Source: Turbatrix aceti
Taxonomy: Eukaryota; Nematoda; Chromadorea; Rhabditida; Panagrolaimidae
Direction of reading: 5' to 3'
Assembly (NCBI GenBank): GCA_963969345.1
Contig: OZ017768.1
Span: forward strand, 5,604,718-5,668,717
DNA: 64,000 nt
Below the pieces are notes generated by a model. The model was not told where the DNA came from. It was given only the letters and a program-made list of their open reading frames with translations, and did no database searches. A program made the translations under genes and the position numbers. Of the stretch, positions 25,396 through 60,656 are shown piece by piece; within the stretch, counting starts at the first letter, position 1; each line of letters opens with the position of its first letter.

Positions 25396-28300
25396 TCACC
25401 TGTTATTTGGGCAGTCGGCAGTGTCGTGGATGAATTCCTCACAAAAGTCACAGTAGGCCCGGGCCGGTCGAGAAACCCCGAATCCGTTGACTTCTTCGAT
25501 CGCAGGATTCGTGTCGGGAACCGGCGCTTTGCCGAGGACGAGATCGTTGAGGTACTGAATGCGACGGTCGCGTTCGTCGACCTTCTCGACGAACTGAGCG
25601 ATCATGGAGTTGAGAAAGTCGATGTGCGCGTCGAGATCGGTCATGGAACCTTCGGCATCCTGAAAAGACTGTTGTATGAACGGTACAGGAGGTTGTGGGG
25701 TCAGTAAACGAAAAAAAGCTGTGAAACCGAAGAAAACAGCAGACCACCACAAAGCACAAAGAAAGTTAACACCCAAACGACAAAGAGGTCGATCGACGAG
25801 GGATACGGTAGAATTTGTTTTTTTGACCGAAAAAATGGTTCAGAGTATAAAAAAAAACTGTTTTTGACCAAAAAAAGTGTTGAAATATAAAAACTGCTGT
25901 TTTTTGTCCGAAAAAATGTTAAAAAAATAAAAAATGCTGTTTTTGACAAAAAAAAATTTTCAGAAGTATAAAAAAACCATTTTTTACCGAAAGAAATGTT
26001 AAAAATATAAAACAGCCATTTCTGCCCCGTTAAGTTCCAAAAAAACATCCGAAAAAAATCCACCTCCGCCAAAGACCCCACTGTCGCCCGAGCAAAGCAC
26101 CCCGAAACTCACCATGGACGACTTATTAGCGAAACTAACTTTATGCAGCTGGGAGAAGACCTGAAGCTTTTCATCGGCCAGGTGCTTCTCCCGCTCGATG
26201 AGGGACACAGCGTCGAGGGCGCGTCTCAGCTGTTCGTTTGCGTCGTTGAGTTCCTGAACCCTCTTTGACTCGCGTTTGTTTGCAGCTTCGAGTTCCTTTT
26301 TAATGATCTCCGCGTAGGTTTGGAGTTGTGAGTATCGTTCTTCGCTGATTCCCCCTGCTGTGGCCGTGGCTGAGGGTCCAGAGCTCTGAAGCGCGGCTAC
26401 TTGGCTTTCCAGAGAAGCTTTTTGGGCCGCCGCAGAATCGAGTTGGACTTTGGTAGCGGCGAGTTGGTCTTTCAGGCCGGCGGCTTCGCTTGAAATTGCC
26501 TGAAGCTTGGTTATCTCGGCTTGGAGAGCTTCTTTCTCGCTTGTAGCAGCCGCCAGTTGAATTCTGGCTTGGTTCAGCTCTTCTTGGTGTTTGGCAGCGG
26601 CTTCAACAGCGGATTTCTCAGCGTCCAGGCTGGCGACGAGTTTTTGCTTCGCGTCGACATCTTTTTCAGCGCCTGATTGAAGTTTTTCGATTTCAGCTCT
26701 GAGCGAGAGGATTTCCGCGGATTTGGCCTCATCGAGGACCGTCAGCTTGCGTTCTGCTTCGGCGAGAGTGCCAGTAAGCTCTGTGATCTGTTTCTGCTTC
26801 GCGTCGTCGTCGGAATTGGAGGACAAAAGCTGCTGTTCGATCGCAGCTTTCTGAGCGGTCAGCGCTTCGATCGTCGCGGTCTTTTCGCTTTCAGCCGCTT
26901 TCGCAGCAGTTAATTCGGCTTCCAGCTTCGCCCTGGCTTCGTCATTCGTTTTGGCAGCGATTTCCAAAGCAGCGTTTTGATCCTTGACTTCCAGCAACTC
27001 GGCAATCTTCTCAGAAAGCGTGCTTTCCAACTGGGCCCGAAGTTCGGCAATTTCAGCATCGCCGGCTGAAATTTTTTGTTCGCTGTCGGATTTTTCAGCT
27101 TCCAAAGCCGCTGTTTTGCCCTTCAAATCGACCAGAGCGGCGTTTAGCGCGGCAATTTGCTGCTCCTTGGCATCTTCCGAATTTCCAACGGATTGAAGCT
27201 GCTGTTCCAGGGCGGATTTTTCAGCGTTCAGCGTCGCAATGAGGGTTGTTTTCTCTGCATCGGCGATTTTCAAATTGACAAGAGCGGTTTCGGTTTCAGC
27301 GAGAACGATCAATTGTTTTTCAAACTCAGCGTTCGCCTTCTGCGCGTCTGCGAGTTCGACAGTCAGCGTTGACTTGTCTCCGACGGCCTTGCGCACCTCT
27401 TCTTCGAGAACCTCAATCACTGATTTGAGATTTCCGACTTCGTTTTGGCGTTCTGCGAGTTCGGATTGCAGGCTGGTAACATTTTGGGATTTTTCAGCCG
27501 TTTCAGCTTGCAGAGCAGAGCTGGAAGCTTCGATCGCAGCAAGTTTGGTCTCAAGATCGCTGATTTTCGCAGTCTGACTCGCAGATGTCGTTTCGAGATC
27601 CAGTTTGGTCTTTTCGATGGAAGAAAGTTGATTTTTGGATTCAGCGAGGGCGTTGCTGAGATCCGCGATCTGCTGTTCTTTTGCGTCGCCGGAAGAGCCC
27701 AGAGACTGAAGTTGCTGCTCAAGTGCTGTTTTCTGGGCCGTCAGCTGCTCGATAGCAGCCGTCTTTTCAGCTTCCAGTGCCTTCAAAGTCGCTGCGTCGA
27801 CTTCCAACTGTGCCAGAAGGCCGTCCTTGGCCTTGATAGACTCCGTGAGCTCCGATTTTGCCTTCTGCGCGTTTTCGAGTTCAACAACCTGAGCCTGTCG
27901 TTCGTCGGCTGATTTTTCCAGGTCGGCTTTCAGAGTTTCCGTTGCTAGGATCAGTTTTGCGTTTTCAGCGGCAAAGTTGTCCTTGATTTGCTCGATTGAA
28001 GTCGCCTTTGTCTGGAGTTCGGAAATCTGGGTAGTTTGGGTCGATAACTTTTCTTCCAACTCGATTTTTGCCTGCTCGGTTGCAGCTAGTTGGTTTTTCG
28101 ATTCGGCTAGAGCGTTGCTGAGGTCCACGATCTGGCCGTCTTTGGCGTCACCCGACGAGCCTAAAGACTGAAGTTGTTGCTCGAGGGCGGATTTTTCTGT
28201 CGTCACAGCATGCAGGGCAGCCGCCTTTTCTGTTTCTACAGTTTTCACAGCGGTCAAATCAGCTTCAACCTTGGCCAGCAGTTCATCCTTTGCCTTGATA

Positions 28301-31300
28301 GAATTTTCCAGCTCGATTTTCGTTTTTTTCGTCTTCTCAAGTTCAGAAAGGTGACTTTGGTTCTCAGCAGTCGTCTTTTCCAGGTTGGCAGCCAACTGCA
28401 CGCCTTGTTCCGCCAATTTTGAATTTTCATCCGCCAAATTGTTCTTCGCCTCCTCATTTGAAGCCGCCTGAGCCTGAATTTCAGCAATCTGAGCAGCCTG
28501 AGTCGAGACAACAGATTCCAGCTCGACTTTTGCTTTCTCGATTAAAGCCAGTTGATTTTTGGATTCAGCAAGAGCGTTGCTGATGTCCGCGATCTGCTGC
28601 TCTTTCGCGTCGCCCGACGAGCCCAGAGACTGAAGTTGTTGCTCGAGCGCTGTTTTTTGAGCGATCAGCGTTTCGAGTGCCGCGGCCTTGTCCGCTTCAG
28701 AAGCCTTCAAGGCGGTCAGCTCAGCTGCAGAATTCGCCAGAAGTTCGTCCTTCTCCTTGATCGCGCCTTCGAGATTTTCTTTCGTCTGCTTCGCGACTTC
28801 GAGTTCAGTGGAAATCTTCTCCAGTCCTGTCTCGAGCGTCAGGGCTTCGTTTTTCAATTCATCGAGCTTTGCCTGGAGTCCTGCTTCTGCTTCTCGTCGT
28901 TGATTCAATTCCTCGGAAAGTTTGGAGTTCTCAGCCGCGAGATTTTCTTTTTCCGCCTCGAGAGCCGTGATTTTGGTCGTCAAATCGGAAATTTGAGCAA
29001 CTTGGCCAGAAGAAGCGGATTCTAGCTCGGTTTTCGCGCTTTGGACTGCCAGAAGTTCATTTTTGGCTTCAATTAACGAATTTTTGAGATCCGCAATTTC
29101 GGTGTCTTTCGCGTCACCGGATGAGCCCAGGGACTGGAGTTGCTGTTCGAGAGCGGCTTTTTCTGAGGTCAAAACATCCAAGGCGGTTGATTTTTCGGCT
29201 TCTGAGACTTTGATGGCCGCCAGATCGGCTTCGGTTTTCGTCAGGAGTTCTTCCTTGGCTTTTATCGAGTCTTCAAGCGTCGAATTGGATTTCTTGGCGT
29301 TTTCTAGTTCGCTCAGACGGGTTTGGCTTTCCGCAATCGACTTTTCCAGTCCAGCCTGCAGAGATTCAGCTGTCTTTTGGGATTCCAAAAGTTGAGTCCG
29401 CAAATTTTCATCCGACGATTTCAACTCGACGATTTCCTTGGATAGATTCGCGTTCTCAGCAGACAGAGAAATTCGTGCTTCTTCGCCGGACGCGATTTTG
29501 GCCGCCAGCTCAGCAGCCTGACTTTCCAATTTCGCCTCCAGGTCAGCCCTGGTTTTCTCGACACCAGAAAATTGATTTTTGAGTTCAGCCAGTGCGTTGC
29601 TGAGCTCCGCAATCTGGCCATCTTTGGCATCACCGGTCGAGTCCAGCGACTGAAGTTGCTGTTCCAGTGCGATTTTCTGGGCAGTAAGCGAATCCATGGC
29701 AGCGGCCTTCTCGGCGACTGAATCCCTGCTGGCGGCCAAATCAGCCTCAAGCTTGGCTAAAAAATCATCCTTCACTTTGGCGGAGTCTTCGAGGCCGACG
29801 TTAGCTTTCTTAACTGCGTCCAGCTCGGTAAAATAAGCTTGCCTTTCGCCGGATGTCTTTTCGAGGTCGGCTTTGAGCGAGTCAACGGTTTTCTGAAGCT
29901 CGGCGAAACTCGATTTGAGCGTTGCTTCGGAGCCTTGGAGATTCTGCAGTTCTTGGTTCAATTTGGCGTTTTCGGCGGAAAGTGCCTCGATTTTCGCTGA
30001 TTTGGCCTGAAGATCGGATATCTGGGCAGCCTGGGTGACGGCTGCAGCTTCGAGGTCCGCTTTGGCACTTTGGATAGAGGAAAGCTGATTTTTGGCATCG
30101 GCGAGCGCGCTGCTGAGATCGGCAATCTGCTGGTCCTTGGAGTCGCCGGAAGAGCCCAGAGCATGCAGCATTTGTTCAACCGCAGCTTTCTCTGCTTTGA
30201 CGCGTTCCAGCTCCTCGCCAGCATCTTTGGCAGCCGACGTCTGGGTTTTGAGGTCGTCGACAGTCTTCTGCAGCTCGTCAACTTGGGCGGCGAGAACATC
30301 CTTTTCGGCTTCGACGAAAGTGACGGCTTCTTCTTTTTCAGCGAGGGCCGCTTTGGCTTCGGCAGCGGCTTTTTCGGCAGCCGACAGCTGGATTTTGATG
30401 GTTTTGAGCTGAGCGTTGAGGTGAGCAGAAAGCGTGATGGCAGCGTCTGACTCGGATTCGACGCTGATCCTGGAAGTGTCCTGCTCGGTATTTGCCTCGG
30501 GAATGCAATGAAGCTCCGCGAGTTGGGCTTCTCTCTCGGCTGCTTCGAACTCCATTGCCAATTTCTGGGTATTGGCATTTCTGACAACTTCATCGAGATT
30601 GGATTTCTGCCTTTCAATCGAGCACAGCTGATCGGTGAGTTGTTTGACCTTCTGCTCGAGCGATTTTGTGTACGCCTGAAAAACCACGTATATGAATAGA
30701 AAAGTCCGCCAGAAAAAGATCGCCAATGAAAAGAAAGAAAAACCCACATTTCGGTCGACCGCAGCAACGTCCGCGGTCTTCGCCGGCGGTGCAATTCGTG
30801 AGATACGGGATATCATTGATCCCGCTGCAGAGCCACTGACACTGCCTTGCTCAAATCGCAGGCGAGAAGCCTTGTTGTCACGCACGGGCACCTGCTTGGC
30901 CGCCGGAATCACGGCAACCTGGTCTGCTGGCACGAAAAGGCCGTGATTTGGCTCGCATTTGAAATATTCCTTCTCCTATAAAATGAAAAAAAATACAAAT
31001 CAATGCATTGATTCATTGCTAATGTCGACCACGCAACCACACAAAAAGCACAACAAAACGTAAACAAAAGAAAAACTCACCTGGACGGTTCCGTCGTTTT
31101 TGCCGACGGGTTCGTCGAGTTCGACTCCGACGTAGATTTTATCATCTGTCGTGAAGTGGACGGGTCCGATAAACCGGACAATGCCTCGTCGGTTCCTGGT
31201 GAGCACCGTGTCACCGATCTGCGGCCGCCTGCAAAAAAACAACAAATTTCAATCAGATCATCTAGTACAACTAAATTTTAACCATAAATACCAAAAAACT

Positions 31301-50659: not shown

Positions 50660-51448
50660 TCATTGCGGAGAAGGGGATTCAAGACAGACGGCGGAGTCGG
50701 AAGAGACGTCCCCGTGGGCGTGGGGAGAAGAGAGGACCAGGCCAAGGGGCAGAAAAGGGGAATTGGCAGCCGGACGGGAGGCCTTCTTGGGTCTCGGAGG
50801 GATGCCGTGGGCGGAGTAGCGGTGCTGCTCCATGGTTCGGGACTGGCAGAAGCCCTTGTCGCAGACCTCGCAGACGAATGGCTTCTGCGAGGCGTGGATG
50901 AACTGGTGGTCGCGGAGGTGGTCCTGGCGGCGGAAGGCCTTGTGGCAGACGGGGCACGAGTACGGTCGCTCGTCGGTGTGCGTGCGGAGGTGGATCATGA
51001 GGTTGTACGACTTGGTGAAGTGCCGCTTGCAGAAGTCGCACACGTACTCCCGCTTTGCGCGGCCCGGTCTGCTGGGGCCCCGGCGATTCGTTGGCCCGCC
51101 CGGCAGCAGGAACCACGGTGCGGTCGTCGTCGTCGCTGATGCTGCTGCGATGGCGGTGGAGGTGGCCGTGGAGGGCGTCTCGACGGCGTCGGTGTCGTCT
51201 TCCTGCAGCGAGGCGATGGAGGCAAAGTCAAACTTCTTGCGTCGCTTGGGGGGAGGCGGCTTGGCGGGCTGCTGCTGGAGGGCGAGGGTCGCCTGCCGGT
51301 ACGCCGCGAGCCAGTCGAAGCCGCCGAGCGGAGGGAAGATGGACGGCGGCTGCGCGCCCGGCATCAGCGGAGGCAGCATCGGGGGCCGCAGCACCGCGGC
51401 CAGCAGCGGATTCAGGCCGAATGGCATCTGCTGCAGCGGGACTGACAT
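50660..51448 (-). CDS. odd: Odd-skipped-related zinc-finger factor, copy 1
   Basis: Developmental transcription factor of the Odd-skipped/OSR family. Single visible coding exon, 262 residues from the ATG at 51448, just after a TTTACAG acceptor. The N-terminal part is Pro/Ala/Leu-rich. Three C2H2 fingers follow at about residues 145-225, with the diagnostic [40 protein letters not shown] and [20 protein letters not shown]. The tail ANSPFLPLG...CLESPSPQ is longer than in copy 2. It converges on MCM10, 202 bases away. TTTATT at about 50611 is the likely poly(A) signal. Confidence 0.92.
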
Positions 51449-51518
51449 TTCTCCTGTAAACGAGGGCACTTAAATGGTGTACGGTAGCTTCATACCTTCA
51501 AAACGCGTCACAACGTCA
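50768..51518 (-). repeat. Inverted duplicate block, arm 1
   Basis: Pairs with 59843-60593 in opposite orientation. Over the 681 coding bases the two arms differ at five positions without indels; over the 70-base 5' flank they differ at about eight. Confidence 0.95.
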
Positions 51519-51563
51519 GAAAATAGCACGGGCCGATCCCACCTTTCAGTCCCGAGACAAAAA

Positions 51564-51587
51564 GTGCTCCTTTGCGCAAAGGAGCAC
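51564..51587. promoter_or_regulatory. Perfect 24-base palindrome with C/EBP-type core
   Basis: Twelve bases GTGCTCCTTTGC are followed immediately by their exact reverse complement; the centre reads TTGCGCAA, the consensus for C/EBP bZIP dimers. It lies 116 bases before the ATG of Odd copy 1 and has no counterpart before copy 2. Confidence 0.55.
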
Positions 51588-53554
51588 CCTGGCTACGGTA
51601 TTGTTTGCCTAGGAGCTGTTAGAAGCAGCGGGGAGGGACGCGGGGCGTGCTATTGGCTGTCAAAGTTCACGCAACGGCGGGAGGGGCCAGTAGCAGAGAA
51701 ATAAACAAATAAACACTGCCGCTATGGTTTCGACACGGTTTTAAATAATTTCTCCAAGACAAGAGAGCGTTCAGGAAAGCAACCTGCCACGCGCAACACG
51801 AATCCCAACAATTAGCGTCCCCATGCAAGCCGGAGTCGATTGTCCGAAATGTGTTTCGGCGGGTTCCCATGTCAAAGGCGCGAACGAACACGGATACATA
51901 CCCATGGACGTAATCAGTCAACACGCTGCTTTTGTCGTAGACCCGCCACTTTGTCATAAAGTGACAACATGGGGTGCGGGGGCATTTACGATAACCATTG
52001 ACAACACCCGGCACGAGCAGGAAGGCCGGGTGTGCTGCTTCTCGCCGGGGATGGTGATCATCGCTTGCTCGTTCGCTGTCACCTCCGAGACTTGCAAGTG
52101 GCGAAATGGAATTGTTTGCCGTCTTCCTTCTTCCGGAGTATCATCGCGCGCGCTTTGATCGTCTCTCGCTTGCGCCGCCCCCAATCAAGTCGGGGTCACC
52201 GGTTGTACAGTAATCTAAATACATACATATTTCAGCGGTCAGGTGAAAGTTGCTGGGGAACAAAAGAGGCATGAAACAGGTAAACCTGGGCGGTCAAAAA
52301 AAACAAATGAAAAAAAAAGTAAGAAGATAGGAATGACTCGCCCAGCCGGTCCCGGCCGGGAGTGAGTGCTTCCCCCAAAGAAGTATAATACTATGTATGC
52401 ATGCTAGACAGGCTGACGAAGCCCCAGCGCCAGCCAGCAGCCAATCCCTCCACCTGGGCGTCTGTTTTTTTACAGACAGACACGAAGGCGACGGGAGGAG
52501 GCAACTGTAGGAGGGACGAGAACGAGAACGAGAACGAACCTCTGTGAGGGCTGTAAACCCGCAAAACGTGTGATTATTGACACATTCCATCCCCCCGGGG
52601 AAAACTGACTGACTGACTCAACTGAGTGAGTGAGAAACGGTAGGTAATGGCGAACATCCTTGTAGGATGTGTAAAACGCAAAACACGCATCTTCGAGACC
52701 CAAGACCCATTCAATCGATGGCGACGACGGGAGCAACAAATATTTAGATATCACTCGTACCGTCGCGTATTCGCTCTCGACGGCAACTAATCCCCTCGGT
52801 GTGAGAAATTAAGCAGCTTCCGTGCTCAGTGATAGCAGGTGTGGCGTACACCGAGAATCCGTGGTCGGTCGCGATAAGAAACGGGAACAGGCCCAAGATG
52901 GTGAGCACGAGGGAAACGGTCGCTGCTTACTGCTAGTACCAACGGCCCGGCCCTGCCCCGTGGCTTGTTTGCATCGGGAGACAACGAAGTAAGCCTACTA
53001 AACTCTGATTTTAGATGATTTGATTTTCTGAGACAAAATGGATGGACAAATGGAAGGTCGGAGATGACAAATCCAAAAAATTTGAAAATACATAGTTGCA
53101 TTGAATGGTGTCCAGGTGATCAGTCTGTCCCTTCGACAACGCGCAAAGGTGCGCAGGGCACGTTTTCTCAGACACCAATGCTCGTCGTCTCGTTAGCTGA
53201 CGACGGCCGCACCTGACCATGTTGGACGCGCGGAAGAACTCAAAACTTGCGCCTGCCCCAGTTTTTTCGATTTCGACAGAGCTTCCTGGACAAAAAAATG
53301 TGAAACACCCTCGTTCCTGAAAAAAAGTGAATGTGATAAAAAAGAAAAAAACGGCTCTGTTCGAGGAGCGGTTGGGAGGGATGTTAGCTTTTCCCGGTTG
53401 GGCGCGTGCTGTTGTTGGCCAGCGTAAATACCGCACACCCCGGTCGCGTACCCTCCTACCTGTGACGCTGACAATACCCTATTCGGGAACAATGAAAGTT
53501 TAATTTCTCGTTTTCGTTTCCTTTTTTTTTCTTGGGATGGGGATTAAAAAAAAG

Positions 53555-54080
53555 CAGAGTTGTTCGATGCTCACCAAATTGCTCCTGCTCACTGCTCGCT
53601 CCTGCTCAGCTCACGAGCGCGAGCGGAGCGAGCGCGAAAAATTGGAGTGCTCAATGAGCATGAGCAGAGCGAGCACGAGAAATTGAATTGCTCAAAGAGC
53701 GCGAGCAGAGCGAGCAAGAGAAATTTTTAAAATGAGCACTGCTCACTATAAATTTAGTGTTACAGATACTAAAATACTGGTAATTTCGACCAAAAACACG
53801 ATGTTGGGGGTATCTCCAAGCAGTATACGGTATTTCTTTTAGTGAGGAACTGAATTTTGGCTCAAAATTCACTTTTTTTTGTGTGAGCCATGTTCGCTCA
53901 TTGCTCGCTCTTGCTCAACTCACGAGCGTGAGCAGAGCAAGAGCAGAGGATCTGAGAATAAAAGAGCGCGAGCGGAGCGAGCGCGAAAATTTTAGGAACT
54001 CAAAGAGCATGAGCAGAGCGAGCACGGAAAAGTGAATTGCTCAAAGAGCGCGAGCAGAGCGAGCACTGAAAATTGTCGAA
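53555..54080. repeat. GAGC-rich inverted repeat cluster
   Basis: Many units like GAGCGCGAGCAGAGCGAGCA and GAGCATGAGCAGAGCGAGCA on one side, with GCTCACTGCTCGCTCCTGCTC-type complements at 53565-53615 and 53890-53925. The whole can fold on itself. Confidence 0.75.
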
Positions 54081-57000
54081 TTGAACAACTCTGAAAAAAA
54101 GGGAGAAGAAGCGTGATTGGGAGCGGCAGAGGCACCCATCGATGCTGCGTCTGACGAAGAAATGAAAAAAAATAGAAGACTGCGGGCCAGGGGTTATGGT
54201 AGCCACAGCCTGCAGAAGGCCGGGCAGGTAGGCTCATGCAGCGCCTCCCCCCGACGACTCCCAGGACGAAGCAGGTCACGGCGCTTGCCTGATACATATC
54301 CCCGATCGTACGTATCGTCCGGTCTGTCGTGTGTGCGCGATCCGCGACCTGAAACAAATTGAACGGCAGAGCGCACAAGCGCACAGGCGGCACTCATGCC
54401 CCTCCACTCGGCATCCGGGAATCTCAATGCCGCCTACGGGGCACCTCTGAGAAAGTAGGGACGTTGAGTGAGAAACGAAAGGTGTGAGCGTCGCGCTGTA
54501 AAGAGGTGTGAAGGGTTATAAACACCCCAGCGAAGCTCACTTTCAGGCTGCGTCGACGATCACAGAAGCCACTCCTAGGCAACTGGCTGGACGACTTGCG
54601 AACCAACCGGCCGGCTAAATTTACAATCGCCGGCTCTTTAAACAGCTAATAACGATGCAGGAAGCTGTAAATCTTTTTATGGACAAAAAATCGTATCGGA
54701 AATTGTGTTTGATGGGCTGAGAATTTGGAGCATCAAAAAATCGTATCTGTCATGTTTCCTAAATAAAATTTTGTACAAAATACATACGATTATAGTAAAA
54801 AAATCAGTGATCAGTAAAAAATATCGTAACCAAACGGAAGTATGTAAAAGTGATAGAAGTAACAGTAAAACAGCGGCGTCAGCAGTGCTTATCGTAAAAA
54901 GCCACCAACCACATGCAGGTCAAAGTGGGTGCCGTCCGCGGCCGTCGTCGGGAGTATCGGTGTCCATCTCGATTGACTGCCTAATCCGCAAAAGATGTTA
55001 CGGATTGTTTTGGGGTGAACTGTGCGACGCTTACGACATGCCGACCCTGACAGGGCACTGTTTACACACTCCGAGAAAGTTTTTTTTTTTCTCATTTTTT
55101 TTCCGATTGCAAAAAAAAATTAAACGACCGGGAGCAGCCGGACCCCGTTGAAAAGATGCTTCGAACAAGCGAACAAGCTGATTTGAATCGTAAAAAAAAT
55201 GACGAACCGGGAGAGGGACAGGACAAAAAACGCCTGTGCAGGCAGGCGCATGCAACCTTTTGTCGTTCGTTCTTTTCTGCGACTTTCCTTTCATGTCTTT
55301 TTTGCCCGGAAACCTTTGCAATCCAGGCTGGCAGAGGAGGCAGTGTGTCACCATCCGTGTTCCGTTGCGTAAGAGCCTGATCTGGCGCCTGCGAAGGCGA
55401 AGAGGTGGCTTGACTTCCTCTTTGACGACAACGACCACGACCACGAATACGAATACGACGACTCGTGCCACCTTTTGTCCTCCCCCGTCAGCCACCACTT
55501 CCACCGTCGAGACCAACGACCCGCATTCAACGACGCGGTCCCGGCTCTCGATTGTTACGCAAAAGGCAAGGCTGCCACGACAGGACAATGCTTGCTTCTC
55601 GACTGGGAAACCGTAACCCGGCTTTCTATTTGTATTGTTTATGACTTTTTGGCGAACGAACGGATTACGATATAGCACCTTTGCGTGTCTGCCTTTTTTT
55701 GGTAAAAAACTGAATAGCGTTAATTGCGTCAATATTTTATGGATCTAACAAGCTCGGGTTTTGTTCGTTCAACTGTACGAACTTCATAGAATTTGGTACC
55801 ATCTTCGTGGATCCGTATGACCGTACTCAAGGATACCGCTTCGCTTATGAGTCGAGTCGTTAGCGTGCATCTTTGTTTGTTTACAGTTCTTTCTTTCGTG
55901 AAAACTGCCGACTGGGATGTCCTCCGATTAACAAAGTCGTCTTCAGCGAAACCTATGCGGGCTCATGGAACGCGACCCGCCTGGCAGGGGGTAAAAGCAG
56001 CCTCTGCAGGCGTGCTTGAACACGTGGAGATCGTTTGAAGGCAATAGCAAGCCTTTGAAGCCGGAAGGAATCATCATGCGAGGTGAGAGGGCCACCACTC
56101 TGATGTGAGGTGCTCCAGCTAATCCGACGACGACCCAACCGATTAGCGGGAAGGAGAGAGCAAAGAAGCGCCCGGGTTCAGTACGGGAGAGGTGAAGGTG
56201 AATGAATCATGACGCTTTATACCCCCGGCCAGAGGCTGCGGAGCAAATACGGACGAGCGCGCGTGGTAAACAAACGACATGCTGCCAGGCGGCAAGCGGA
56301 TCCACTTTGAGCCGCCGCCCTCCGACAAAGCGCGAAGACGCGTGCCGCTAACTGATCTGCCCCTGCGATAAATTGCTTAATCCAATAAACATTCCGTCGC
56401 GAAGCGGAGGGTGTCGAGGAGGGGAGAAGGAAGAAAAGCCGTGCCGAACCCGCATGCGCGAAAAAACCGGGGGCCAAGCAAATTCGAGTTTGTCGGTTGT
56501 CAACGAGCGCGGGCTTTTTAGGGTCTTGAGCCTACTCCATGCCTTGGGAAGCACTCCCGAAGGCGAAGGCAAAGACGAAGGTGACCTGGAGGGTAAACAG
56601 CCAGCCCAGAAGTGTGTGCTGCGCCTACCCGCCGTGTATGTATTTATTATAGAGTCAATCAGTCACGCATGTGCAAATGTTTGCAGGTTGTCTTTCTTTG
56701 GCTTTGCAGCTTTGAACTCCCCGCTGCCCCGGTGTAATAAAGTCTGTCTTCTCGCGTGCACGCATGCTTGTATACGCGATACAGGACAAGACGGCGTTGA
56801 CGCGGGCCGACCGCGGCCGCCGAGCAACATCAACAGCAGCACCAGCTTTCGCTCGCTCTCGACCAAGTTTGGACACCGCTTTCGATGATGATGATGATGA
56901 TTCGTCATGATCGGTTACGATTAGGATTAGGATTAGGTGGCGGTCGCAATTGCCTGCCCGTATTGGCCGACTCTTGATCAAACAAACAAGCGCGGGCGTG

Positions 57001-59842
57001 CGAAGACACCACAGACACGAACGACAACAGATGGTTGTCCTCTCAATTCGATGACCGGTTACCGAGGCAAATGGCTGACTAAAACGGTGACTGTCGGGAG
57101 TTGAGTGGGACTCCGGGGTGTCTACCAACTCACTACCGTAACCCAAAAATCTGAAAAGACACTCCCGTCTTCGCTGTTTTTTTTGAGTCCAGAAAGAACA
57201 AAAAATAAGAAGAAGCTCGTTGATACGAAAATACAGGTACACCCACCCAGAACAACCGTGTTTATTGCCCGGTCGTGACTCAGTATGCTCATGAGTACAG
57301 CGGCGAGTGCTTTTTGGGCCATGTTCCTGTCATGTTTTTTTTTGGGGTGTAACAAAAAATATCGGTGTGAAGCAGGTCATAAAAGGCGCTAAACAGCAGA
57401 GAATACGCGGCAAGAGGCCTTCTCTGCCGAGAATGGAATCGTCCGTCAATCGTCAATCGTCAATCGTCATAATGCAAGAGAGACAAAAAGCGAGAACATA
57501 ACAGGCAGGAAGCGTTGATGTCTTTTTTTTCTGCTTTCGGGAAAAACATGCACTTACTTTTTTTTTACAGTCGAGATGAAGCCGGCCGGGTGTTGCGCGG
57601 CAGCTTGCTTTGATCTCACCGACTGCCCTAGCTCTCGCCCGCGAGCGTAAGCGTAAGCGTGAGTGCGATCGGCTCCTACTTTTCTCCCCGAGGCCGGAGG
57701 CAGGTGATAACGGCGCAGGCACGGACAGAGGCACATTAAAAACGTGTGACGGCTCTCGTCGCTTCCTTTTCGGTGAACACGGACAAAAACGGAAGGTGGC
57801 GGCGGTAGTGGTGATTACGCAGTCAATCAAAGGCAGCAGCCGCTCCGAGAGCGCCTCTAATCAGTCACGCTGCCTACTGTCGGCCGCTATGAGCCGCAAC
57901 CAATCGAAGCCAGCGTCGGGGACCGGCAACTAGCCCGCCGAGTCAATAAATTGCGGTTCTACGAGACTGCTACCATTTGGCTTCTCTTCGCTTCGTTTCA
58001 CGCGTGTTTCTGATGACTTTGTTTTAACCATTGTAAATACATATGTTTGTTTTTCCAGAATCCGCATTAATTGTTTTGAAATATGTGAAAATTTATAAAC
58101 TGTTTCTTAGAACCGTAAATTATTTAAAAAATGTAATGATTATCGATTTTTGATGGCTATCACAGTATTTTTAACCAAAGAGCGAAGATTCAGTTGCATG
58201 CATTTTTTTGCATCTCAATGCAATACGACGACGGCCGTGTGTTCATTTGATTTTAAATGCCCCAGAAGCACGACAAACAACAACCGGAGGCAAACAAAAG
58301 CATGACCGCGATCGTCTGTGAGACTGGCGAGTTGGCCTTTTTTCTTCCCGTAAATAAATTTCGTGTTAATTTACTCCTCCTGGTGACACTACACCGGGCG
58401 TTGATCAGCCTCGCCTTCCTCCCCGTTGCACCCCTTTCTTTCTTTTTTTACAGACGGCACCGAAGGCGGCGGCATTTCCGCCTGCGCAACACGCACCAAC
58501 CTGGTCGTGTCCGTCTCCGACCGCTGCTGTTTTTTTTCGCGCAGACACAAAAAACTGCTGTTTTTTCCCGTAATTTTTAATCGTCGTCATTTCATAACCA
58601 CTCACGATTACGGCCGTTAATTGCCAGAAGGACTGACAGGGTCCCGTCACCTTCAGGCGTTTTTTACGCACTTCAGGGAGGGAGTAATCGGCCCCAAACG
58701 CCCGGATAATGACAGCCTTGGGCGCACCGTTTTTGTCGTTTTCGTAGATTGTAGCCGATCATTTGTTTCAGTCGCGTGTTCAGTGCGAGTTTTTGCTTCT
58801 TTCTGACATGTGGCAATTAGACAAATCCCACCCTTCCTCCCGGATGGATTCTATGTGCCCGGAGATGGATTACGATACTTTTTGACTCGTGGCTACTGCC
58901 TTCGCGTTACGTTGACGACTCCAGGATCCTGGGACCCAGAAAAATGGCGCTCCTGGGAAATTTTTCACGATCGTTTTTGCTTTTTGCACTGTGCGTGTTT
59001 GGAGGCATCGTGGGGAAACTGGGATGAATGCTTCCCGTCATTCGGGCTTTTTTCCTGAACGTGTACTACTGGCCTATATTGGGATACTGTAACCGTAAAA
59101 TTTTTCAAAAACTGACAAACTTGATTTTCATCTCAGCGAAAGTAACAAACTTCTGGGGTGTCCACACTCTCAAAAAAATTAAACGGACCCATGAACAGTG
59201 CACGAACATGAACAGAACAGTGTTCGTTTGATTTCGGGGCCTATTTGTCTCCCTGTGCTGACTGACCGTTGTTTCCCTCCTTACTGTCTTTAATTCATTT
59301 CCGCATGTGTGTTTGCAAACTGATAACGAAGACGAAGACAGTATTTGGCCTGGAAAGGGGGGCAGAGGTGTCCCGACCGACACCCAAGGTGTCAAAACAG
59401 GACCGCTTTGTTTATCGCGTCCACCGCGGTCGCGGCCCTTTTTCCGACCGCGGCCGGGTGCCGGCGCCGGCCTGATCGCTAATCATCACGAAGAGTACGG
59501 AGAAGCGCGCTAAGCGGCTTCCAGCCAGTAAATATCAGTCGAATGCTGCTCAACCAACGGCAGCGTGATAACGGAGCACGGTTAATCGGCTTGGCCTCTC
59601 TTGCTTCTGCTCGCGGATCGCTTCGACGGAAGGCGTATCCGCGTTGTCATCCAAGGTGTGCCTTTTGGCTTTGGGAATGCGATAACACGTTGCTTGTCGT
59701 CACTTTTAAGCTTCTTTTTTTAAGCCTGCAGTGTTTTATCCAAGTGGAATCAGCAGCCACAGTAACTGCTTTTCACAGCTGCTAGTTAAGATTTTTTTCT
59801 TTCTGGTAAACGATCACTGAAAGTTTTTGTCGTCATCTTTTT

Positions 59843-60593
59843 TGACGTTGTGACGCGTTTTAAAGGCTTCCAGCTACCGTACACCATTTAAGTGCCTTCG
59901 TTTTCAGGAGAGATGTCAGTCCCGCTGCAGCAGATGCCATTCGGCCTGAATCCGCTGCTGGCCGCGGTGCTGCGGCCCCCGATGCTGCCTCCGCTGATGC
60001 CGGGCGCGCAGCCGCCGTCCATCTTCCCTCCGCTCGGCGGCTTCGACTGGCTCGCGGCGTACCGGCAGGCGACCCTCGCCCTCCAGCAGCAGCCCGCCAA
60101 GCCGCCTCCCCCCAAGCGACGCAAGAAGTTTGACTTTGCCTCCATCGCCTCGCTGCAGGAAGACGACACCGACGCCGTCGAGACGCCCTCCACGGCCACC
60201 TCCACCGCCATCGCAGCAGCATCAGCGCCGACGACGACCGCGCCGTGGTTCCTGCTGCCGGGCGGGCCAACGAACCGCCGGGGCCCCAGCAGACCGGGCC
60301 GCGCAAAGCGGGAGTACGTGTGCGACTTCTGCAAGCGGCACTTCACCAAGTCGTACAACCTCATGATCCACCTCCGCACGCACACCGACGAGCGACCGTA
60401 CTCGTGCCCCGTCTGCCACAAGGCCTTCCGCCGCCAGGACCACCTCCGCGACCACCAGTTCATCCACGCCTCGCAGAAGCCCTTCGTCTGCGAGGTCTGC
60501 GACAAGGGCTTCTGCCAGTCCCGCACCATGGAGCAGCACCGCTACTCCGCCCACGGCATCCCTCCGAGACCCAAGAAGGCCTCCCGTCCGGCT
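59843..60593 (+). repeat. Inverted duplicate block, arm 2
   Basis: Counterpart of 50768-51518. The shared 5' flank includes TGACGTTGTGACGCGTTTT and CTACCGTACACCATTTAAGT. Confidence 0.95.
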
Positions 60594-60656
60594 ACCATAT
60601 CCTCCTTTCTGGGGCACTCCGATGAAGTCTCCTCGGAGTCCCCTGACCCGCAATGA
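59913..60656 (+). CDS. odd: Odd-skipped-related zinc-finger factor, copy 2
   Basis: Second Odd/OSR paralogue, 247 residues from the ATG at 59913, after a CGTTTTCAG acceptor. The first 227 residues equal copy 1 except for one Thr to Pro change near residue 108. The three C2H2 fingers are identical. The tail is shorter ([20 protein letters not shown]) but still resembles that of copy 1 (SPFL... DVSSDS... ESPSPQ), so the paralogues are older than their coding identity suggests. AATAAA at about 60699. Confidence 0.92.

What the first reader, a model, noticed from the sequence alone, without database searches (positions are those of the whole stretch)
50768..60593. Divergent Odd-skipped paralogues kept near-identical by gene conversion
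Over 681 coding bases the two genes differ at five positions (four synonymous, one Thr/Pro), with no indel. Directly upstream, 70 bases differ at about eight, and the C-terminal tails, though related, have changed in length and sequence. A simple recent duplication would leave flanks as similar as the coding part. The sharp boundaries at the ATG and at codon 227 instead suggest ectopic conversion between inverted copies 8.5 kb apart, covering all three fingers. That would give two factors with the same DNA-binding domain but different tails and regulatory DNA.
Basis: partly seen in the sequence, partly recalled or inferred. Interest (0 to 1): 0.85.

Follow-up and report, generated by a model that had tools for sequence, protein, structure and literature searches.

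The report
Nematode Odd-skipped pair, core gene-converted
Two back-to-back copies of a worm developmental control gene share an almost letter-perfect middle but have older, drifted edges, which is best explained by one copy having overwritten part of the other, a known process seen here in a pair of Odd-skipped genes.

Summary
Copies A (minus strand, 51448-50660) and B (plus strand, 59913-60656) differ at 5 of 681 core bases (4 synonymous, one Thr/Pro) and at 9 of 75 bases upstream. Their C-terminal tails are alignable but differ at 18 of 71 aligned bases plus four gaps. The genome is a nematode's (145 exact SL1 leaders), and no third Odd gene was found in it. Stronger evidence: the tails are homologous yet about ten times more diverged than core synonymous sites. 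In the same genome, four direct transcription-factor duplications are 97-100% identical over 4.8-8.1 kb. A second inverted head-to-head pair (GATA, same chromosome) has a 97.6% core and collinear 78-81% flanks. Ectopic conversion within an older inverted duplication is the best explanation (0.75). Sister-species, population and read data were not available. 'Different regulatory DNA' is only partly right: the proximal 75 bases are shared and end near a likely trans-splice acceptor.

The parts
50660..51448 (-). Copy A, Odd-skipped-type zinc-finger gene, intronless ORF of 262 aa
   Evidence: ORF and translation; Pfam C2H2; relatives are Odd-skipped-related proteins
50768..51448 (-). Copy A near-identical core, codons 1-227; finger region codons 135-214 = 50807-51046
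   Evidence: 5 differences in 681
50660..50767 (-). Copy A diverged C-terminal tail and stop
   Evidence: 18/71 mismatches plus 4 gaps against the B tail, over tail plus 9 bases; homology tests
51449..51523 (-). Copy A proximal block: likely outron end and promoter-proximal DNA; TTTACAG acceptor-like site at 51454-51460
   Evidence: 9 mismatches in 75 against copy B; sequence; acceptor reading is recalled, no transcript data
59838..59912 (+). Copy B proximal block; TTTTCAG acceptor-like site at 59901-59907
   Evidence: in the genome this block matched only the A and B loci in a search with the whole spacer
59913..60656 (+). Copy B, Odd-skipped-type zinc-finger gene, intronless ORF of 247 aa
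59913..60593 (+). Copy B near-identical core, codons 1-227; finger region codons 135-214 = 60315-60554
60594..60656 (+). Copy B diverged C-terminal tail and stop
51524..59837 (.). Spacer between the divergent copies; no gene recognised in the 7 ORFs tested
   Evidence: 7 spacer ORFs of 135-237 aa had no Pfam match; no arm similarity above shuffles upstream of -76

Best explanation
An older head-to-head inverted duplication of a nematode Odd-skipped gene gave two intronless, probably trans-spliced copies whose outer flanks, proximal block and C-terminal tails then diverged. Later, one or more ectopic gene-conversion events between the inverted copies rewrote a tract covering about the first 227 codons, with all three fingers and the N-terminal KFDF motif. 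On the 3' side the tract ended where indels and substitutions had broken homology; on the 5' side it ended near the acceptor and ATG. The result is two factors with the same DNA-binding part, different tails and different distal DNA. Shown: the segmental divergence, tail homology, no third Odd gene found, and contrasting duplications in the same genome. Inferred: conversion as the cause, its direction and number of events, trans-splicing, and any difference in function.
For: Core synonymous divergence 4/170 (dS 0.024) against 9/75 upstream and 18/71 plus 4 gaps in the homologous tail (p 1.3e-7; pooled flanks p 1.5e-6). Tail homology is supported by two tests. Codon bias alone would leave about 83 synonymous differences. 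Controls: four direct duplications in this genome are uniformly similar over 4.8-8.1 kb. An independent inverted head-to-head GATA pair shows a 97.55% core of 2,208 bp, coding and non-coding alike (20/768 v 34/1440 differing columns), with collinear 77.8-81.1% blocks on both sides and clustered differences (p 5e-5). Inverted neighbours in Caenorhabditis are reported to convert, with tracts of 12-2,958 bp (PMC3966223, section 4 part 1).
Against: The upstream contrast vanishes if the -51..-42 cluster is one event (p 0.13). The tail alignment was optimised and is short. A 681-bp tract is long against the usual 50-200 bp, so several tracts may be needed. No similarity above shuffles survives upstream of -76 or after the stop, so the older duplication is seen only through the tail and the 75-bp block. 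The direct-duplication controls may simply be younger. There is no outgroup DNA, population or read evidence.
Confidence: 0.75

Rival explanations
1. A recent, short inverted duplication of about 0.8-0.9 kb without conversion: flanks differ because they were never duplicated, and the tail and proximal block changed fast afterwards (recruited 3' end, relaxed or positive selection, multi-base mutation).
For: Newborn worm duplicates are often inverted and structurally unequal (PMC2728529, passages; PMC2728738, passages). fog-2 recruited a new 3' end after a partial duplication (PMC3966223, section 6). The upstream contrast is not significant if one cluster is one event. No outer-flank homology remains.
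Against: The tails stay homologous through the stop yet carry 18/71 mismatches and four gaps against 4/170 synonymous sites. The fetched direct duplications show no such contrast.
Confidence: 0.17
2. Old paralogues kept similar by strong selection on the nucleotide sequence (codon bias, RNA or overlapping function), without conversion.
For: GC3 of the core is high, 0.885 and 0.903, against a mean of 0.58 and a maximum of 0.80 in 35 other domains.
Against: Independent draws from the same codon usage would differ at about 83 of 226 codons; 4 are seen. Fourfold sites still include 12-14% A/T, and 3 of 132 differ.
Confidence: 0.04
3. Assembly artefact: one gene placed twice, with flanks joined wrongly.
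For: No reads were available. The same assembly holds a perfect 8,108-bp head-to-tail repeat elsewhere, so false duplication is conceivable in general.
Against: Both copies lie in one 11.6-Mb contig, differ at 5 core sites and have different tails and flanks. The search found no third copy in the other contigs.
Confidence: 0.04

Closest known systems
Inverted or adjacent gene-converted neighbours of Caenorhabditis: hsp16-48 modules, hsp70-7/hsp70-8 (PMC3966223, section 4 part 1)
   Same: Adjacent inverted paralogues with homogenised tracts; tract lengths in the same range
   Different: Heat-shock genes, not transcription factors; hsp16-48 modules are 416 bp apart, here about 8.4 kb
fog-2 / ftr-1 of C. 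elegans (PMC3966223, section 6)
   Same: Conversion in a shared core while the 3' ends differ, so function can diverge despite conversion
   Different: Same-orientation pair; the fog-2 3' end was recruited and is not homologous, whereas here the tails are still homologous
med-1/med-2 and the inverted end-3 pair of C. briggsae (PMC6945043, passages)
   Same: Near-identical duplicated nematode transcription-factor genes; end-3 copies inverted within several kb; med genes of the Elegans group intronless
   Different: GATA factors; the passages I saw ascribe similarity to recent duplication and do not give a core/flank contrast
C. elegans odd-1 and odd-2 (PMC8411216, whole text)
   Same: Two Odd-family genes with three fingers; gut expression or gut phenotype reported
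   Different: odd-1 has two exons; the two are distinct enough that odd-2 is placed closer to the mammalian genes than odd-1
Drosophila odd/sob/drm cluster (recalled, from no call)
   Same: Linked Odd-family paralogues
   Different: Old, clearly distinct proteins; separate origin

Membership tests
Odd-skipped / OSR zinc-finger family | Tandem C2H2 fingers of Odd type | tested here: met
   Pfam C2H2 matches over cut-off (three fingers read by eye from the sequence); solved OSR2 2ee8 matched over residues 121-211 at 2e-41; Odd-skipped-related proteins fill much of the best-120 list
Odd-skipped / OSR zinc-finger family | Groups with Odd proteins of related species | tested here: met
   A and B sisters (100/100) inside a six-row Panagrolaimus-like group (100/99) in a 23-row tree of nematode Odd proteins; no non-Odd outgroup was included
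Odd-skipped / OSR zinc-finger family | N-terminal KFDF..(I/L)A motif (feature noted from the alignment) | tested here: met
   KFDFASIAS in both copies; KFDF in the other full-length rows of the 12-row nematode alignment (row P0034 starts after it)
Pair under ectopic gene conversion | Tract of excess identity, with homologous but more diverged sequence on both sides | tested here: met
   Tail v synonymous p 1.3e-7, pooled p 1.5e-6; the upstream side alone is inconclusive if its cluster is one event (p 0.13)
Pair under ectopic gene conversion | Core identity within the species above orthologue identity between species, and trees that differ by segment | not testable with these tools
   No DNA of a sister species or of other individuals was available
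Newborn short inverted duplicate without conversion | Equal neutral divergence across the duplicated span | tested here: not met
   18/71 plus 4 gaps in the tail against 4/170 synonymous sites, on the premise that the tails are homologous

The most novel reading that the evidence does not exclude
In this nematode, head-to-head inverted pairing is a recurrent arrangement that keeps duplicated developmental regulators homogenised in the DNA-binding part by repeated conversion while tails and distal regulatory DNA diverge. The Odd pair and an inverted GATA pair on the same chromosome are two examples, and their unusually high GC3 (Odd fingers 0.96-0.99, GATA domain 0.91) would be the footprint of repeated GC-biased conversion. 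Conversion that stops at the ends of the DNA-binding module would let a pair share targets yet differ in partners and timing.
Probability: 0.2. Interest if true: 0.65.

Novelty: new member of a known kind. Interest (0 to 1): 0.47.

Why it matters
It is a compact natural case of two transcription factors that appear to share a DNA-binding domain through conversion while their tails and distal DNA drift apart, with a second, cleaner inverted GATA example and four direct-duplication contrasts in one genome. It is a reminder that low synonymous divergence between paralogues does not date a duplication, and it offers a testable system for how conversion boundaries shape regulatory duplicates.

Tried and rejected
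Simple recent duplication as the full account: disfavoured on the tail; the upstream evidence alone would not reject it. Unrelated, recruited tails as in fog-2: disfavoured because the tails stay homologous through the stop. Codon bias alone: about 83 synonymous differences expected, 4 seen. A and B as separate odd-1 and odd-2 lineages: they are sisters within a Panagrolaimus-like group, but conversion of the core would itself force that, so this is not decisive. Third copy: none among 58 genome matches; the third best is 35% identical and generic. More homology outside the block: none above shuffles upstream of -76 (59 of 100 shuffles as good) or after the stop (23 of 100).

A first GC3 table read minus-strand loci on the wrong strand and was redone. 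That table covers 30 of 77 homeodomain matches (the best-scoring ones, two of them the identical tandem copies) and 5 C2H2 loci; L006 was left out for an internal stop. Polarity: all five core differences have A/T in copy A and G/C in copy B, a hint that A has mutated since conversion (5 of 5, two-sided sign test 0.06 by hand), but there is no outgroup to polarise them. The Panagrolaimus strains show one such protein each in the listed best 120, a capped list, so copy number there is not established.

Papers: PMC3966223 (abstract and outline, section 4 part 1 of 2, section 6), PMC6945043, PMC2728738 and PMC2728529 (passages), PMC8411216 (whole text). All others were seen only in search listings. 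'odd-skipped' together with 'gene conversion' listed one paper, on bird bone genes; that open-access library is the only place searched for earlier reports on Odd genes.

Full report
OBSERVATION. Self-comparison of the window finds a strong inverted block, 50750-51523 against 59838-60611, 774 bp without a gap. Copy A is an ORF on the minus strand, 51448->50660 (262 aa); copy B is on the plus strand, 59913->60656 (247 aa). Over the first 681 coding bases they differ at five positions, codons 106 (Thr/Pro), 110, 121, 190 and 204, the last four synonymous. The 75 bases upstream differ at nine, five of them between -51 and -42.

WHAT IT IS. Both proteins have C2H2 fingers over Pfam's cut-off (three fingers by eye), match solved OSR2 and find Odd-skipped-related proteins as relatives. 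The window's genome is held: 59.9 Mb in 28 contigs, the window inside an 11.6-Mb contig. It carries 145 exact copies of the nematode SL1 leader (60 forward, 85 reverse) and none of the reversed control pattern. Its mitochondrial COX1 has Rhabditophanes as best-scoring named relative (86%); an unnamed environmental sequence reaches 96% (in which only the 7,999 candidates sharing most words were scored). The Odd pair groups with three Panagrolaimus proteins and one metagenome protein (100/99 support, 23 rows). So it is a nematode near Panagrolaimus by this gene; the species is unknown. Of 58 matches to the protein in the genome, only these two are Odd; the third best is 35% identical. In both copies the ATG follows TTT(A/T)CAG by five bases, a likely trans-splice acceptor (consensus recalled; no transcript data), so the upstream block is probably outron plus promoter-proximal DNA. 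The spacer showed no Pfam match in 7 ORFs tested; the left neighbour is an mcm-10 gene, convergent with A.

SEGMENTAL DIVERGENCE. In the core there are 4 differences in 170.2 synonymous sites (dS 0.024) and 1 in 510.8 non-synonymous sites; the first 315 bases are identical. Upstream, 9/75 against synonymous sites gives p 0.0037, but p 0.13 if the cluster is one event. For the tail plus nine bases, 18 mismatches in 71 aligned columns and four gaps give p 1.3e-7; upstream and tail pooled, p 1.5e-6. The key question is whether the tails are homologous at all, since worms often make short inverted duplications with unequal ends (PMC2728529, passages; PMC2728738, passages). Two tests say yes: anchored at the stop codon, 23 of 36 bases match (reached by a fraction 5e-5 of other offsets), and the alignment beats codon-shuffled tails in all but 2 of 2000 shuffles. 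The first test includes the stop codon itself and the second uses an optimised alignment, so they are good but not overwhelming. The tail length difference, 45 bases, is a multiple of three. Beyond -76 and after the stop no similarity above shuffles remains. Codon bias cannot account for the core: independent draws from the same usage would give about 83 synonymous differences.

CONTRASTS IN THE SAME GENOME. Six transcription-factor families were scanned (homeodomain 77 matches, GATA 10, forkhead 25, T-box 23, HLH 27, zf-C4 99). I fetched five sets of close neighbours with equal or near-equal scores. Four are direct duplications that stay near-identical over spans far longer than the ORF: homeobox 8,108 bp at 100%, GATA on C6 6,898 bp at 99.84%, T-box 6,854 bp at 97.3% with 20 gaps and cut by the end of the fetched stretch, and an HLH triplet, 4.8-5.8 kb at 99.7-99.98%. 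A same-strand zf-C4 group on C1 with equal scores was seen in the table but not fetched. The fifth is an inverted, head-to-head GATA pair on the same chromosome as the Odd pair: 2,208 bp at 97.55%, then four collinear flanking blocks at 77.8-81.1%, two on each side. Its core is as similar in non-coding as in coding columns (34/1440 v 20/768 differing, with approximate ORF limits), and its differences are clustered (p 5e-5). This is the conversion pattern in cleaner form. The sample is small and was picked by score, so 'inverted pairs show the contrast, direct ones do not' is only a lead; the direct pairs may simply be younger.

MECHANISM. Best reading: an older head-to-head inverted duplication, divergence, then one or more ectopic conversion events across about codons 1-227. 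The sharp 3' end fits loss of homology by indels. A 681-bp tract is longer than the usual 50-200 bp but within the 12-2,958 bp reported for C. elegans, and inverted neighbours are reported to convert (PMC3966223, section 4 part 1). Direction is unknown. That the products share a DNA-binding part but differ in tails and distal DNA follows from the sequence; that they differ in function is inference. The proximal block keeps stretches of 19 and 25 identical bases (-70..-52 and -41..-17, from the mismatch list), so regulatory divergence is partial.

GC3. Core GC3 is 0.885 (A) and 0.903 (B), the fingers alone 0.96 and 0.99, and the inverted GATA domain 0.91 over 34 codons against 0.59 in the direct GATA pair. 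Thirty-five other domains average 0.58 and reach at most 0.80. This would suit repeated GC-biased conversion, but samples are small and the GATA open frame as a whole is only 0.62.

KNOWN OR NEW. The process is known in nematodes (hsp16-48, hsp70-7/-8, fog-2/ftr-1; PMC3966223), and near-identical duplicated transcription factors are known there too (med-1/2; inverted end-3 of C. briggsae; PMC6945043, passages). C. elegans odd-1 and odd-2 are two genes with gut expression or gut phenotypes reported (PMC8411216). One search of the open library for Odd-skipped with gene conversion listed one unrelated paper. Hence: new member of a known kind, moderate interest.

Noticed in passing
G000 C4:2083939-2086144 (-) and C4:2090204-2092410 (+) (loci L047, L048): Inverted head-to-head GATA-factor pair, 97.55% over 2,208 bp with collinear 78-81% flanks; the reading frame of the second copy is not continuous in its 5' part.
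   Followed up: partly
window 53553-54094: A repeat of about 540 bp in the spacer with 39 other listed genome copies at 97-100% identity (40 of 309 candidates scored, so a lower bound): probably a recently active mobile element.
   Followed up: partly
G000 C1:3624496-3640710 (loci L044-L046): Homeobox gene in a perfect 8,108-bp head-to-tail duplication, 100% identical: a very recent duplication or an assembly duplication.
   Followed up: partly
G000 C6:710928-724713 (L049, L050); C2:8772001-8784190 (L051, L052); C1:2123937-2141917 (L053, L054): Direct tandem duplications of GATA, T-box and HLH genes, 97-100% identical over 4.8-6.9 kb.
   Followed up: partly
G000 C4:728148-753676: SL1 leader genes in a regular array at about 1.5-kb spacing (18 copies listed), besides scattered copies.
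   Followed up: no
window 27544-30161: Several related direct repeats at about 68-76% identity, nature not examined.
   Followed up: no
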